Source: Deltaproteobacteria bacterium (lineage in GTDB: Bacteria > Bdellovibrionota_C > UBA2361 > OMII01). Taken from it: 37,560 bases of DNA. Made by a program: the position numbers and the translations under genes. Every line of letters begins with the position of its first letter. Position 1 is the stretch's first letter. Positions 1,894 through 8,333 of the stretch are shown one piece after another. The notes under the pieces are model-generated. The model had not been told where the DNA came from. It did not search any database and worked only from the letters and a program-made list of their open reading frames with translations. The stretch spans positions 1 through 37,560 of the forward strand of contig CANIHJ010000012.1 of the NCBI GenBank assembly GCA_947467385.1, written 5' to 3'.

Positions 1894-3180
1894 CTACGTT
1901 GGGCCGGCAGGAGGTGCTGTCGGCTGGACGACTGGCGCTTCATCGAGCGCGAGCGCCTCAAGCGGAGGGGATGGCTCTCCGGCTTTGAGCTCAAGCGCCT
2001 TCACCCAAAAAGTCTCCCGCTCCTGGTTGGCCTCAGCCTCTGGCATATCGCGGCTGAAGTCGAACGCCCACTCAAAGAAGGAGCCGACTCCAGCAATCCC
2101 CTCAGCGGCTAAATTGAGCGGAGCCTGGAGGACCCGGTACGGGACGACACTCCAGTTGATCGAGTCGTTAAAGTGCTTGTCAAAGAAGTTGAGCGCCTCC
2201 TCCTCGACGTACGGAAAGGGGAAGAGGCCGGGATCCTCCTTGCTCGGGGGAACAAGCGAAACAGTCTGGGTGTAGAGCACTCCGACATAGTGATCCGCGC
2301 ACAGAAAAATCGTCTCGGGCCGCCCGATCTGCTCCCGAAGCTTCATGCCGTAAGCAAACGGCACGGTCCTGTCGAATATCCCGAGGATCAAAAGCGTGTC
2401 CCGGCCGTCGAGGTACTGTGCGGTGTTTTTGGGGTCGGTGCGAACCTGCCTGCGCAGCGCCTCAAAGAACTGCTCCTCCTCAAAGCCTTTCTGCTCGCTC
2501 ACCGTCTTTATGTATTGGGCTATGCGAGGCTGGTTTGAGTCGCGAAAGAGGTCCACAAGGTCGGTGCCCCCCATTACTAACACGTTGTACTTAAGCCGCT
2601 CATCAACCCCTGCGGTGACCGCCACGTTGATCGCGCCGCGGCTGATGCCGAAGGTGCCGAATTTCTCCTTGCCGAACTCGTTCTGGAAGTAGTCGAGGGC
2701 AAGCCGATCCCTAATTAAGTTGAGGCGAAAGATCTCCTCCAGCTTGTCGAAATTTGCGGGGTCCTTGAACTCGTTGCTGCGGTTGACTATCGCAGCGTCG
2801 AATCCGGCATCGGCGAAGTAGCTCGCAAGGTGGCGCTCAATAAAGTTCTGCCCACCGAGCACAGGAAACACGAGAATCAGCGAGTCGGATCCCTCGGCCG
2901 CCTGAAAGAAGTCTATCACGATAGGACCCGCATATGAGTCGACGGTGATGTGCTTGAGGGTGTAGTTGTCCGTGGTCTTCTGGATCTCGATGCGAGAGGT
3001 TCCGTACGACTCCTCCGGCGAGTAGTAGAGGTTCATCGCCTCCGGCCGCGGCGGAGGCCCGTCGTACGTGCCGTTACCGGACACCCGGATGCATCCGGCC
3101 ACCTGCGCGAGCACGGCAGCGAGCATCAGCAGCGACGCGGAGGCGATGCGCTGCCCCGAGCGCTTGGTGCGAAGAGACAT
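1894..3180 (-). CDS. Serine alpha/beta-hydrolase lipoprotein
   Basis: This reads as a 428-residue alpha/beta-hydrolase. I place the start at the ATG at 3180 rather than further upstream, because it is preceded by AAGGG and opens a clear lipoprotein signal (positively charged start, hydrophobic run, VAGC with Cys30). The nucleophile elbow is GISRG (Ser180). A plausible acid and histidine are in 'FDRTVPF' and 'ADHY' further downstream, so the triad appears complete. The fold family includes esterases, lipases and peptidases; no narrower call is supported. It is convergent with the C45-type gene and divergent from the GT39 gene across a 320-base gap. Both hydrolases at this locus are predicted lipoproteins. 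Confidence 0.7.
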   Translation of the reverse strand: MSLRTKRSGQRIASASLLMLAAVLAQVAGCIRVSGNGTYDGPPPRPEAMNLYYSPEESYGTSRIEIQKTTDNYTLKHITVDSYAGPIVIDFFQAAEGSDSLILVFPVLGGQNFIERHLASYFADAGFDAAIVNRSNEFKDPANFDKLEEIFRLNLIRDRLALDYFQNEFGKEKFGTFGISRGAINVAVTAGVDERLKYNVLVMGGTDLVDLFRDSNQPRIAQYIKTVSEQKGFEEEQFFEALRRQVRTDPKNTAQYLDGRDTLLILGIFDRTVPFAYGMKLREQIGRPETIFLCADHYVGVLYTQTVSLVPPSKEDPGLFPFPYVEEEALNFFDKHFNDSINWSVVPYRVLQAPLNLAAEGIAGVGSFFEWAFDFSRDMPEAEANQERETFWVKALELKAGEPSPPLEALALDEAPVVQPTAPPAGPT

Positions 3181-3191
3181 GAGTGAGCCCT

Positions 3192-3220
3192 TTGAAAACC
3201 TTTTTGCTTGGGGCAATAAA
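3192..3220 (+). promoter_or_regulatory. Sigma70-like promoter in divergent gap
   Basis: TTGAAA (3192-3197, 5 of 6 matches to the -35 consensus) and AATAAA (3215-3220, 4 of 6) are separated by exactly 17 bases on the plus strand. Transcription would start near 3227 and run into the strong hairpin terminator at 3305-3370. The -35 lies just 11 bases from the start codon of the divergent hydrolase gene. Confidence 0.45.
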
Positions 3221-3240
3221 ACTGGCGGCTTAGAGGTAAG

Positions 3241-3267
3241 ATGTCGAAAAACCTGAGTCGACGCTGA
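3241..3267 (+). CDS. Possible leader peptide of eight residues
   Basis: ATG at 3241 reads MSKNLSRR and stops at TGA (3265-3267). AGAGGT lies immediately upstream (3232-3237), with a short spacing of three bases. It sits between a candidate promoter and a strong terminator, the arrangement seen in attenuators. An ORF this short can easily arise by chance, so confidence is low. Confidence 0.2.
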   Translation: MSKNLSRR

Positions 3268-3304
3268 ATAGGGTTGATGATGGGGCGTCAACGAGGGTAG
3301 TCGC

Positions 3305-3370
3305 GGAGCGCTGACGGATAGTAGCCACCAACCTCCCCAATACTATCCGTCAGTCGCTCCCTTCTTTTTT
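3305..3370 (+). terminator. Long intrinsic terminator hairpin
   Basis: The arms GGAGCG + CTGACGGATAGTA (3305-3323) and TACTATCCGTCAG + CGCTCC (3341-3360) pair over 19 base pairs with one bulged T (3354) and a 17-base loop. The T-rich run CTTCTTTTTT (3361-3370) follows on the plus strand only. The stem is much longer than that of a typical terminator, and no ordinary gene ends upstream of it on this strand. Confidence 0.7.
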
Positions 3371-3500
3371 CCTGTTCATCCGCCATCTTAGCCCCAAAAA
3401 CAATATCGTGTTTGCTCAACTAAACCAGCTCGAAACCTCGTAATCCTCCGTGTCGGGTGGTAACGTGCGGGCGCTAAAAAGAGGTATTCTCAGGAGTTTT

Positions 3501-5189
3501 GTGAGTTCTAACAGCCCAGCTTCAGATAAGTTTAACAAGGTTGCCCTCGCCGTTCTCGCAACCATAGTTCTATTGCGACTCCTATCCCTGTCCATCCCCG
3601 ATCTAGTGGACTCGACAGAGGGACGGTACGGCCTCGTGGCGAAGCTCATGCTCGACAAGCATGATTGGGTAACTCCGTGGATTGTCATCGACGGTGTAGA
3701 GCAGCCGTACGACGGTAAGCCGCCGCTTCATTTTTGGCTGATGCAGCTAAGCTTTCTCTCGCTGGGCTTTAACTCATTTGCGGCAAGGCTGCCTGGAGTC
3801 CTAAGCGCCCTCGGGGTTGGGTTTGCCTTAATGCAGCTTGCTCGGCGCGTGGCTGGTAATGCCGCAAGCTACATAGCCGCACTCGTGTTCGCCAGCTCGA
3901 CCATGACCTTCTTCCTCGCGGGCTCGGCTACTCTCGACATGACCCTCACCCTTGGCACCACCTTGGCGATCTCCGGCTTTTACCAAACAGCCAGGAAACC
4001 AGGCTCGTGGTTCTCGAATGCGTGGGGCTACCTCTTCTTCGTCGGCCTGGGCATCGGATTCCTAGTCAAGGGACCGATCTCGTGCGTGCTGCCCGGGATG
4101 GTGATCGCGCCCTGGCTTCTTGCTCGCCGTGTTAAGACAGGATCGTGGCCGAGCCAATTTTCGGCGATTCCATGGTTCACCGGATCGCTCGTATTCCTCG
4201 CGATCGTTGTTCCCTGGTTTGCTCTTGCGGAGATGAAGACTCCGGGCTTCCTGAAGTACTTCTTTATCAACGAGAACTTCGGACGGTTCATGAGCAAGGA
4301 CTACGGGGACAAGTACGGCTCGGGACATAGGCAGATTACCGGCACCGCGTGGTTAATGATGGTGCCAGCCGTCTTCCCTTGGGCGCTGATCCTTCTGGCT
4401 TGGCTCGTCGCTGCCCGGAAAAGGATCTTCAGCCGCTCTTGCGCGAAAGCGATCAGCGAGGATTCCGAGCTCCTCTACGCCATCCTGTGGGCGGTCTGCT
4501 GTCCGCTGCTCTTAATCCCAGCGCGGCAGTACACGGCGACGTACCTCTTGCCGTCAGTGCCGGGCTTTGCCTTTCTGGCTGCAATCTTGTGGGCGAAGCG
4601 CCTCGAGCCCGTCGATTCCGCGCGGGAGTTCACCCGCACCGCGTGCAGATGGCTCGGTGTCATCCTTGTTCTGGCACCTATCATAGGCTCAATTATCGGG
4701 TGGAATTGGTACGAGACCCCTACCTCGATCATGGCTCTCGCCTTCGTCGTCGCCGGAATGTTTTGGATATCCCTTCGTGTCTCCTCCTCCGAGCGGTCGC
4801 TGCCAAAGGAGATTGCGCGGCTGTCCGTATGCTCGGTGATCGTGTTCACTCTCGCCTGCCTCTGCTGGAATAACCATCTCTCAGGGCGCCGGTCCTCGCG
4901 CCGGGTGCTTGACCTTGCCAGCACCTTCGGCAAGCCGGACAGGGAGCTGCGGGTGGCATTCCCGCTCTACTATCCCTTTTCGGTGAACTTCTATGGGCCG
5001 CTCCACTCGAATCCATCACTCAAGATCATCCACCTGAAGGACGAGGAGATAGCAACCTCTGACGCAGATATCTTCGTGGTTCGTGACAGGAATGAGGCTC
5101 AGTTTGAAAAGCTCGCGCCGGGCAAGCAAAAGCTGGCTGAAACAAATCACTGGAACATCTACCGAGGTTCCGGCGAAAACTTGAAATAG
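3501..5189 (+). CDS. GT39-family membrane glycosyltransferase (ArnT/PMT-like)
   Basis: This is a multi-pass membrane protein of about 562 residues. The N-terminal region after the first membrane segment has the GT39/ArnT-like signature 'DSTEGRYG' and, some 35 residues later, 'YDGKPPLHFW'. These enzymes move a sugar from a polyprenyl-phosphate donor to lipid A, protein or other acceptors at the outer face of the inner membrane. Many hydrophobic segments follow, and a soluble C-terminal tail of roughly 100 residues closes the protein. I prefer the GTG at 3501, which has CAGGAG just upstream; an in-frame GTG at 3450 would add 17 residues without a clear ribosome site. The acceptor cannot be predicted. 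It converges on fliW. Confidence 0.8.
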   Translation: MSSNSPASDKFNKVALAVLATIVLLRLLSLSIPDLVDSTEGRYGLVAKLMLDKHDWVTPWIVIDGVEQPYDGKPPLHFWLMQLSFLSLGFNSFAARLPGVLSALGVGFALMQLARRVAGNAASYIAALVFASSTMTFFLAGSATLDMTLTLGTTLAISGFYQTARKPGSWFSNAWGYLFFVGLGIGFLVKGPISCVLPGMVIAPWLLARRVKTGSWPSQFSAIPWFTGSLVFLAIVVPWFALAEMKTPGFLKYFFINENFGRFMSKDYGDKYGSGHRQITGTAWLMMVPAVFPWALILLAWLVAARKRIFSRSCAKAISEDSELLYAILWAVCCPLLLIPARQYTATYLLPSVPGFAFLAAILWAKRLEPVDSAREFTRTACRWLGVILVLAPIIGSIIGWNWYETPTSIMALAFVVAGMFWISLRVSSSERSLPKEIARLSVCSVIVFTLACLCWNNHLSGRRSSRRVLDLASTFGKPDRELRVAFPLYYPFSVNFYGPLHSNPSLKIIHLKDEEIATSDADIFVVRDRNEAQFEKLAPGKQKLAETNHWNIYRGSGENLK

Positions 5190-5201: not shown

Positions 5202-5735
5202 CTACTTTCCGGCGTCGCCAGTCTTGAGCGCGCCCTGCGCCTCAGGGGCAGCCTCTCCACCCTCAGCCGCTGCTGGGGGCTGTGGCTCTTGGGAGCCGAG
5301 CGGAAAGCGAGTTGAGTAGCGCGGATCGTCGAAGATCACCTGAACACCGCGTCGGTTCCGCATGTTGACGAAGATTGGCGCCTTGAGGTTGGCCGTTGTG
5401 AGGCGCGGATCGGGGCGAACCGTAACGACGATGAGGATCGCAAACTCATCCTCCTCCTTGAAGTCGCACTCCTTGTCGGTGAGCGGCGGCTTGAAGTCAA
5501 ACTGCTGGCCTATCTCAAAGCCGTCGATCACCACGAACGCCAGGTTCGGATCGTCCACTGCGTGCAGCCACGAGACGGGATATTTATGCTCAAGCATAAC
5601 GTAGCGAGTCGCGTGCGGAAATCCGATGATGCCAGCCGGCACCTCAATAATACTGGCGGCAGGAACCTGCATCTCGCCAAAGCGCCCGCTCTGGAAGGTA
5701 ATCAGGTCTTTTTGGTTGTCGCTTGCGTCGCTCAT
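5202..5735 (-). CDS. fliW: Flagellar assembly factor FliW
   Basis: The 177-residue protein carries the FliW signature from residue 14 on: 'FQSGRFGEMQVP', 'IIGFPHATRYVMLEH', 'WLHAVDDPNLAFVVID', and later 'NLKAPIFVNMRNRRG'. FliW binds CsrA and flagellin, and so relieves CsrA repression of flagellin translation once flagellin has been exported. Its ATG overlaps the csrA stop by one base (TAATG), a sign of translational coupling and a common csrA-fliW order outside gammaproteobacteria. Typical FliW is 130-150 residues; here about 30 extra residues rich in Ala, Glu, Gln and Pro extend the C-terminus. A run of nine G (5193-5201) directly follows the stop. Confidence 0.93.
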   Translation of the reverse strand: MSDASDNQKDLITFQSGRFGEMQVPAASIIEVPAGIIGFPHATRYVMLEHKYPVSWLHAVDDPNLAFVVIDGFEIGQQFDFKPPLTDKECDFKEEDEFAILIVVTVRPDPRLTTANLKAPIFVNMRNRRGVQVIFDDPRYSTRFPLGSQEPQPPAAAEGGEAAPEAQGALKTGDAGK

Positions 5736-6121
5736 TATTCCTTGCCTCCCTCATGTTGAGGGGTGCCACGTACTTTTCCTGACGCGCCTGTGGAGCCCTG
5801 TGATGCCTTGTCCTGGCTTCGGCCCTTAGGCGTCGTTGCCGAGATCTTCGAGGTTCGCGGCCCTGCGCCTGCAGCACCGGCCTCCCGAGAGCTCCCCTGC
5901 CACCCGCTCAACTGATCAAGCACGCTACCGCTAATGTCTCCCTCTGCAGCTTTCTTGTTCTCTTCGAGAATCTGCATGTAGATCTCTTCGCGGTAAATTC
6001 GCCTATCAGCCGGGGCCTTAATGCCGACCCGCACCTGATTACCCTTTATCTCAACGATGGTGACGACTACCTCATCACCGATGTAAAGACTCTCACCTGG
6101 CTTACGTGTCAGAATTAACAT
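5735..6121 (-). CDS. csrA: Carbon storage regulator CsrA with long C-terminal tail
   Basis: Residues 1-60 are a textbook CsrA, a dimeric RNA-binding repressor/activator that binds GGA motifs in mRNA leaders. [11 protein letters not shown] is at the start, 'VRVGIKAP' is central, and 'YREEIY' (43-48) includes the conserved Leu4 and Arg44 of the RNA-binding surface. AGGGAAGG lies eight bases upstream of the ATG. Most CsrA proteins end near residue 60-75; this one continues to 128 with a low-complexity tail rich in Gly, Ser, Ala, Lys and Gln. It is coupled to fliW downstream. The two genes are far from the main flagellar operon of this window but belong to the same regulatory circuit. Confidence 0.95.
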
Positions 6122-6314
6122 TTGCTATGCCTTCCCTGGCGCAACTTCCTTGTTGTACTGCTTTAAGATGACGTGACGCCCGCTTTAGGATTAACTGATT
6201 GAATGTTGGGCCGCAATCAGAAAAAGCTAGCGATCACAGGCAAATAGCTCGGCTCAATCGGGGGTGCCCGCTGCTTTCCACCAAAACCTCGTCTCAATCG
6301 TGGCCAAAGGTCCC

Positions 6315-7469: not shown

Positions 7470-8333
7470 ATGAAACGAGTCTTTCTTTTTCTTGTCACGA
7501 ACATCCTGATCGTTCTCACGATCAACATTCTCCTGTCCCTCCTGGGAGTCAATTACTACCTCTATCAGCAGGGCATCGATTTCAAGCAGCTCGCGGCGTT
7601 CTGCCTTGTGTGGGGTATGGCGGGCTCTCTCATTTCTTTGGGTATCTCCAAGTGGATGGCGAAGATGAGCCTCGGCGTGAAGGTTGTCGAGAAGCACTCT
7701 GCTGAGCTGGGGTGGCTGGTCTCGATGGTTGAGCACCTCTCCCGCAAAGCAGGGCTACCGGTCACCCCTGAGGTTGGAATTTGGAATAGCCCTGAAGTGA
7801 ACGCCTTCGCTACAGGCCCCTCAAAACGACACTCTCTAGTTGCGTTCTCGACGGGGCTGCTTGGCACGATGAGCAGAGATGAAATTGAGGGTGTCGCCGC
7901 GCATGAGATCGCGCATATTAGCAACGGTGATATGGTGACGATGACCCTCCTTCAGGGCGTTGTGAATGCCTTTGTAATGTTCTTCGCCCGTGTTGCCGCT
8001 TGGGCCATATCTCAGAACATGCGAGAGGAAAACCGTGCCGGGATCCAGTTCGCGGTAACCCTGGTGCTTGAGCTGGTACTTGGGGTTTTGGGCATGCTCG
8101 TTGTAGCTGCATTCTCGCGCCACCGCGAGTTCCGCGCGGATGCTGGCGGCGCAAAGTACGCTGGCCGCGAGGACATGATTGCGGCTCTTGAGCGACTCTC
8201 CGTGGCGTACCGCCGCTACGACAAGGACGCGGCGCTTGCAACGCTCAAGATTGCCGGCGGTGTTGGACGATTCTTTGCCTCACACCCCCCGCTTGAGAAG
8301 CGTATCGAGGCTCTTCGCGCTGGCGCTTACTAG
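7470..8333 (+). CDS. htpX: Membrane zinc protease HtpX
   Basis: The 287-residue protein starts with two membrane segments (about residues 5-30 and 40-60). It carries the zinc-protease motif HEIAH (145-149) followed by two more hydrophobic segments, and the third-ligand region 'HREFRAD'. It ends with the family's 'SHPPLEKRIEAL'. HtpX is an inner-membrane M48 protease that degrades misfolded membrane proteins alongside FtsH. A TATAAC at 7445-7450 might be a -10, but no good -35 accompanies it. A bidirectional terminator follows the gene. Confidence 0.93.
   Translation: MKRVFLFLVTNILIVLTINILLSLLGVNYYLYQQGIDFKQLAAFCLVWGMAGSLISLGISKWMAKMSLGVKVVEKHSAELGWLVSMVEHLSRKAGLPVTPEVGIWNSPEVNAFATGPSKRHSLVAFSTGLLGTMSRDEIEGVAAHEIAHISNGDMVTMTLLQGVVNAFVMFFARVAAWAISQNMREENRAGIQFAVTLVLELVLGVLGMLVVAAFSRHREFRADAGGAKYAGREDMIAALERLSVAYRRYDKDAALATLKIAGGVGRFFASHPPLEKRIEALRAGAY

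What the first reader, a model, noticed from the sequence alone, without database searches (positions are those of the whole stretch)
3192..3370. Orphan promoter, tiny ORF and 19-bp terminator hairpin: small RNA or attenuator
In a 320-base gap between divergent genes, TTGAAA-17-AATAAA is followed by an eight-codon ORF with AGAGG and then a very long hairpin (13 bp perfect, 19 bp with one bulge) and a T-run on the plus strand. No normal gene ends upstream, so the terminator must serve a short transcript or control the GT39 gene beyond it. The loop carries ACCTCCCC, able to pair with Shine-Dalgarno-like sequences.
Basis: partly seen in the sequence, partly recalled or inferred. Interest (0 to 1): 0.5.

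Follow-up and report, generated by a model that had tools for sequence, protein, structure and literature searches.

The report
Stress-sigma small RNA, C-rich terminator loop
Between two envelope-related genes of an uncultured bacterium lies a probable short regulatory RNA, apparently switched on by the same kind of promoter as the envelope-repair protease DegP; its hairpin loop could block the ribosome-binding sites of other messages.

Summary
The hairpin and T-run are real: a 19-bp stem with one bulged base, a 17-nt loop and six T's, window 3305-3370. A different anatomy is conserved. In all 5 species of the genus where I found the terminator, it follows TGAATA-N15-CGTC, with fixed spacing although the 15 bases vary. 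The same motif lies upstream of all 9 close degP/htrA orthologues found in the genus (7 exact, 2 with TGAATT) and of none of 20 HtrA paralogues. It also precedes a 115-aa protein in 8 genomes, and htpX and an ABC transporter in 2 each. It looks like an ECF/RpoE-type stress promoter and predicts a ~74-nt RNA (about 3297-3370) that is little more than its terminator. The stem varies by compensatory change (three species); the loop keeps CCUCCCC in 5 of 5. Best reading: an envelope-stress-sigma-dependent trans-acting sRNA, analogous to MicA/RybB and Fusobacterium FoxI/FoxJ, pairing with GGGGAGG-like Shine-Dalgarno sites. Transcription, the sigma factor and targets are unproven; a narrow search for shared targets found none, and the matching ECF sigma was not found in this incomplete genome. 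Main rival: an attenuator of the downstream ArnT-like gene.

The parts
3265..3289 (+). Promoter-like motif TGAATA-N15-CGTC (-35 3265-3270, -10 3286-3289)
   Evidence: Spacing of exactly 15 in all 5 species with the terminator and in G003 (as CGAATA); shared with degP and other genes
3297..3370 (+). Predicted small RNA, about 74 nt; start inferred as about 8 nt after CGTC
   Evidence: Inference from the promoter motif and the terminator; no transcript data
3305..3360 (+). Terminator stem-loop, 19 bp with bulged T 3354
   Evidence: 7 of 19 pairs changed on both sides and kept, three species
3324..3340 (+). 17-nt C-rich loop; CCTCCCC 3332-3338, proposed seed
   Evidence: CCTCCCC invariant in 5 of 5 species
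3365..3370 (+). Terminator T-run
   Evidence: T-rich tail after the stem in 5 of 5; 85% identity in three species
3237..3243 (+). TARGATG box, function unknown (possible vegetative -10 TAAGAT)
   Evidence: Present in 8 of 8 species with the divergent gene pair, also in the three without the terminator
3241..3267 (+).
   Evidence: ATG and TGA belong to conserved DNA boxes; peptides not conserved (by eye)
3458..3466 (+). TGGTAACGT, candidate extended -10 of the GT39 gene
   Evidence: TGnTAnnnT within 80 nt of the aligned start in 6 of 8 species; chance 5.5% per 60 nt
3501..5189 (+). GT39/PMT_2 glycosyltransferase, distantly ArnT-like
   Evidence: PF13231, PF02366; NCBIfam ArnT model at 102 bits, cut-off 567
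1894..3180 (-). Divergent gene, 428 aa, no Pfam or NCBIfam family
   Evidence: conserved beside GT39 in 7 other genomes of the genus

Best explanation
A short noncoding RNA gene. Shown by comparison: a promoter-like motif TGAATA-N15-CGTC shared with degP, followed by a conserved intrinsic terminator whose loop carries an invariant CCUCCCC. Inferred: an ECF/RpoE-type sigma factor starts transcription near 3297 during envelope stress and RNA polymerase stops at about 3370, giving a ~74-nt RNA. Its loop then pairs in trans with GGGGAGG-like Shine-Dalgarno regions of target mRNAs and blocks translation, making this RNA the repressing arm of an envelope-stress response.
For: Hairpin far stronger than shuffles. 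Identity among three species: 28% before, 100% in both promoter halves, 40% in the spacer between them, 69% hairpin, 85% T-run, 31% after. Compensatory stem changes around an unchanging loop. Motif 62 times in 12 genomes against 23 for the reversed control; upstream of 9 of 9 close degP orthologues, always N15, and of 0 of 20 HtrA paralogues; also a 115-aa protein in 8 genomes, htpX and an ABC transporter in 2 genomes each. GGGGAGGTT before RTG exceeds its reversed control in the three compact-form genomes (32 against 8) but not in G001+G007 (24 against 22) or in three genomes without the RNA (37 against 39); a weak hint only, and 2 of the 32 are the RNA gene itself.
Against: No transcript data. 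Only three close and two divergent sequences; absent from G003, G009 and G010 and not found outside the genus. The G001 hairpin is weaker (z -2.7, 2 of 200 shuffles as good), and the model search did not recover G001 or G007. No shared target among 20 candidate genes, and most GGGGAGGTT sites inspected were not convincing gene starts. None of 30 ECF sigma loci has the exact motif upstream. The RpoE-like ECF orthologue was found in 10 of 12 genomes but not in G000, the window's own, 61% complete. The window's own htpX has no such motif within one mismatch. Apart from the recurring places, the motif matches are no more numerous than the control.
Confidence: 0.58

Rival explanations
1. Attenuated leader: the stress promoter at 3265-3289 drives the ArnT-like GT39 gene, and the terminator is a conditional or leaky barrier in its leader; the short RNA is a by-product.
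For: In G003 the motif (as CGAATA) stands upstream of GT39 with no terminator between. GT39 is co-oriented and begins 130 nt after the T-run.
Against: The loop sequence is kept although the stem changes; no conserved alternative pairing or leader peptide was seen; 31% identity between terminator and GT39 promoter region; a candidate promoter lies after the terminator in 6 of 8 species.
Confidence: 0.2
2. A small RNA made constitutively from the upstream box (-10 TAAGAT, 3237-3242), about 120 nt long; the TGAATA motif is then a regulator site or chance.
For: TARGATG is present in 8 of 8 species and 29 bases from GAATA in four.
Against: The box persists in G003, G009 and G010, which lack the terminator, and lies 209 bases from GAATA in G007; no convincing -35 by eye; identity falls to 58% between the box and TGAATA.
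Confidence: 0.12
3. Leader peptide: the eight-codon ORF is translated and couples to the hairpin.
For: ATG-7 codons-TGA at the same spacing in G000, G011, G002 and G001 (by eye).
Against: Both ends are conserved DNA boxes; peptides differ; G000 and G011 align best with two compensating one-base indels inside the frame (by eye); no consistent Shine-Dalgarno; it lies upstream of the predicted start.
Confidence: 0.03
4. Minus-strand element: the hairpin acts in the leader of the divergent gene, showing GGGGAGG in its loop, for example to CsrA.
For: A palindrome folds on either strand; a csrA gene lies at 5738-6121.
Against: T-run and promoter motif face plus; three G-U cells and no A-C cell in the stem on the plus strand.
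Confidence: 0.04

Closest known systems
MicA and RybB, sigma-E-dependent sRNAs of Salmonella/E. coli (passages of PMC1804206)
   Same: About 70 and 80 nt, from their own promoters with a -10 (GTCAAA) like the CGTCAA here; same promoter class as degP; intergenic position kept between species.
   Different: No sequence kinship shown; -35 GGAACTTTT there, TGAATA here; here the proposed seed is the terminator loop (their 5'-end seeds are recalled). Sigma dependence and targets are proven there, not here.
FoxI and FoxJ of Fusobacterium nucleatum (passages of PMC11005410)
   Same: Sigma-E-dependent sRNAs outside Proteobacteria with cytosine-stretch seeds; FoxJ's stretch is predicted in a loop; both repress an outer-membrane protein.
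   Different: FoxJ is ~156 nt; other phylum; no sequence kinship tested.
Mycobacterial B11/6C sRNA (passages of PMC10470900)
   Same: C-rich loops that pair with G-rich 5' regions.
   Different: Two C-rich loops; Actinobacteria; not found by Rfam here.
CcsR1-4 of Rhodobacter (passages of PMC8307010)
   Same: Stress sRNAs under alternative sigma factors; CCUCCUCCC loops are recalled, not found in the passages.
   Different: Four homologous RNAs processed from a precursor with ccaF1; here a single copy with its own promoter motif.

Membership tests
Envelope-stress-sigma-dependent sRNA (functional class) | Promoter shared with envelope-stress protein genes | tested here: met
   Same motif and spacing upstream of 9 of 9 close degP orthologues, 0 of 20 paralogues; as sequence similarity only, sigma dependence untested
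Envelope-stress-sigma-dependent sRNA (functional class) | Intrinsic terminator ending a short transcript | tested here: met
   (structure prediction, not transcript)
Envelope-stress-sigma-dependent sRNA (functional class) | Transcript induced by the sigma factor | not testable with these tools
   Needs RNA or reporter data
Envelope-stress-sigma-dependent sRNA (functional class) | Represses envelope-protein mRNAs by base pairing | tested here: inconclusive
   No shared target among 20 candidate genes from part of the GGGGAGG sites
Rfam families, including mycobacterial 6C, MicA and RybB | Covariance-model score at the gathering threshold | tested here: not met
   0 matches in the window; only chance-level matches, E 1.6 or worse, in the gap
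Peptide-leader transcription attenuator | Conserved translated leader ORF | tested here: not met
   Peptides not conserved, ends explained by DNA boxes (by eye)
Peptide-leader transcription attenuator | Alternative antiterminator fold | not tested
   Only minimum-energy and centroid folds were inspected

The most novel reading that the evidence does not exclude
A minimal stress sRNA made almost wholly of its terminator, whose loop copies the ribosome's anti-Shine-Dalgarno core (ACCUCC, recalled) and acts as a broad brake on messages with strong GGGGAGG ribosome-binding sites during envelope stress: a separately evolved noncoding arm of that response in an uncultured lineage.
Probability: 0.27. 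Interest if true: 0.65.

Novelty: new member of a known kind. Interest (0 to 1): 0.5.

Why it matters
If true, stress sigma factors have acquired a small-RNA repressing arm yet again, in a lineage known to me here only from unnamed or metagenome-assembled genomes, with a different promoter code and a seed placed in the terminator loop. The motif TGAATA-N15-CGTC also gives a direct way to predict that regulon.

Tried and rejected
Tiny ORF as leader peptide: see rivals. Rfam: 0 at gathering, chance-level only in the gap. DNA search of 57 genomes with the 320-base gap: only itself. Extra copies: one match to the model per compact-form genome; among 18 loci with AACCTCCCC that I folded, only the known RNA gene shows such a hairpin. 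Upstream of 17 more distant orthologues of the divergent gene (up to 900 bases) I looked for motif strings only and folded nothing; three carry CTCCCC or CCTCCC, one CTGAATA, one TARGATG.

Targets: GGGGAGG-N3..11-ATG, 273 matches against 196 reversed-control matches in 5 genomes. GGGGAGGTT-N1..10-RTG in 8 genomes; 20 regions plus one overlapping locus inspected; plausible starts were few (by eye: a secreted protein in G011, a CheY-like in G007, a dioxygenase-like in G002) and orthology between species was not tested for these. 80 further regions fetched: 60 of 102 G011 sites and 20 of 32 G007 sites, chosen mainly by spacing; 20 candidate genes (14 G011, 6 G007), no match between any two.

Autoregulation: no exact motif in 400 bases upstream of 30 ECF loci (of 37 ECF matches); two have one mismatch (L218 with N16, L236 with N15), not followed. 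Motif matches inside the ECF sigma gene in 5 genomes were judged coding coincidence. Of the 62 motif matches 50 were inspected, two more (G011, G001) were known, and 10 were never inspected.

Full report
WHAT IS THERE. The gap runs from the ATG of a minus-strand gene (428 aa, no Pfam or NCBIfam family) to a GTG at 3501 of a plus-strand PMT_2/GT39 glycosyltransferase whose only NCBIfam match is ArnT, far below cut-off. At 3305-3360 lies a 19-bp stem with one bulged T and a 17-nt loop, followed by TTTTTT at 3365-3370. It folds at -33.4 kcal/mol and none of 200 shuffles does as well.

RELATIVES. The divergent pair is found in 7 other genomes of the same genus (of 12 held, own included). In G011 and G002 the gap has the same compact element. 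In G001 and G007 there is a longer version, with 130 and 120 bases instead of 14-15 between CGTC and the stem (predicted RNAs of about 189 and 179 nt). G003, G009 and G010 have no comparable terminator. A covariance model of the compact form searched in 45 genomes of the class finds only its own three sequences (E 1e-32 or better), not G001 or G007; the next match has E 0.084. Motif strings were not found in this arrangement upstream of 17 more distant orthologues of the divergent gene. So the element appears confined to the genus and is patchy there.

CONSERVATION PATTERN. Among G000, G011 and G002 pairwise identity is 28% from the divergent gene to the first box, 58% from that box to the next, 100% in CTGAATA and in CGTC, 40% between them, 47% in the short tail, 69% in the hairpin, 85% in the T-run and 31% after it. 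In the stem 7 of 19 pairs change on both sides and stay paired, 98.2% of cells pair, 4 of 500 shuffles reach this (24 of 500 for the count of further pair types), and slid registers pair at 25-56%. Only three sequences underlie this. The loop keeps CCTCCCC in all five species while the stems of G001 and G007 are different sequences; the hairpin of G001 is the weakest (z -2.7). A structure free to change around an unchanging loop is what a base-pairing RNA would show.

THE PROMOTER. TGAATA and CGTC are exactly 15 bases apart in all five, and CGAATA-N15-CGTC stands in G003. In the 12 genomes of the genus the motif occurs 62 times, against 23 for the pattern read backwards. Of the 62, 29 fall in recurring places: this RNA (5), degP (7), a 115-aa protein of unknown function (8; 59-83% identical to the G000 copy), htpX (2), an ABC transporter ATPase (2), and the coding sequence of an ECF sigma gene (5, which I do not count as promoters). 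The other 33, of which 10 were not inspected, are about what the control predicts. With two TGAATT versions, 9 of 9 close degP orthologues (73% identity or more) have the motif, always N15; 0 of 20 HtrA paralogues (37-49% identity) have it within up to 700 bases upstream of the aligned start. DegP (TIGR02037 above cut-off for the G000 protein) and HtpX (above cut-off for the G007 protein) are named; the G008 HtpX and the G004 ABC protein by eye. Single cases include small lipoprotein-like ORFs (by eye), a VanY-type carboxypeptidase and a subtilase.

WHICH SIGMA. The -10 half resembles that of sigma-E at micA and rybB (GTCAAA; passage in PMC1804206); the B. subtilis ECF consensus TGAAAC-N16-CGTC is recalled. 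An ECF sigma scoring best with RpoE-like models but below their cut-offs, followed by a likely membrane anti-sigma (by eye), occurs at 63% identity or more in 10 of 12 genomes; it was not found in G000 (61% complete) or G004 (70% complete), and the genus has further ECFs. None of 30 examined ECF loci shows the exact motif upstream. The window's own htpX (7470) has no motif within one mismatch. Which sigma reads the motif is open.

THE TINY ORF. Its ATG lies in TARGATG and its TGA in TGAATA; these boxes are 29 bases apart in four species, which creates the frame. The peptides differ, and G000 and G011 align best with two compensating one-base indels inside it (by eye). Transcription from the predicted start would not include it. 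What TARGATG does is unexplained.

HOW IT PROBABLY WORKS. Shown: a conserved promoter-like motif shared with degP and a conserved terminator with an invariant C-rich loop. Inferred: stress sigma, start near 3297, ~74-nt RNA, pairing of the loop with Shine-Dalgarno sequences. Target evidence is thin. GGGGAGG before ATG exceeds its reversed control only modestly (273 against 196 in 5 genomes). GGGGAGGTT, the complement of the compact-form loop, exceeds it in the three compact-form genomes (32 against 8) and not elsewhere (24 against 22 in G001+G007; 37 against 39 in G003+G009+G010), but most inspected sites were not convincing gene starts. A narrow search for shared targets (60 of 102 G011 sites and 20 of 32 G007 sites, exact seven bases, ATG only) gave 20 candidate genes, none shared. 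The main rival is attenuation of GT39, kept alive by G003, where the motif stands upstream of GT39 without a terminator.

COMPARISON. It works like MicA/RybB and, closer in seed, FoxI/FoxJ of Fusobacterium, which use cytosine stretches (passages). It is not a sequence member of any Rfam family at threshold. Seven paper searches were made; of the papers listed I read passages of five and no whole text. The search aimed at uncultured freshwater Deltaproteobacteria with ECF sigma and small RNA listed nothing. The library is open-access only, so absence from print is not established.

VERDICT. A probable new member of a known functional kind in a new lineage, with a useful promoter motif; worth a follow-up, not a new principle.

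Noticed in passing
window 3237-3243: TARGATG box conserved in 8 of 8 species with the divergent gene pair, including three without the terminator; function unknown.
   Followed up: partly
L163 1578-1922 and orthologues in 7 other genomes: A 115-aa protein family of unknown function (no Pfam or NCBIfam match) with the TGAATA-N15-CGTC motif about 130-150 bases upstream in 8 genomes; a candidate new member of the stress regulon.
   Followed up: partly
L173 1217-2682 (G001) and L169, L157, L136, L140: RpoE-like ECF sigma gene followed by a likely anti-sigma gene with a GLSGAAIAA membrane stretch; the sigma coding sequence itself contains TGAATA-N15-CGTC.
   Followed up: partly
window 5202-6121: fliW and csrA side by side, 2 kb beyond GT39; on the csrA strand a degenerate TTAATC-N15-CGTC lies at 6170-6194 upstream of csrA.
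   Followed up: no
window 7470-8330: htpX in the same window, without the motif within one mismatch, although htpX of G007 and G008 has it.
   Followed up: partly
L039 (G001) and L040 (G007): Long form of the element with further strong hairpins between CGTC and the terminator; in G007 TARGATG and GAATA are 209 bases apart instead of 29.
   Followed up: partly
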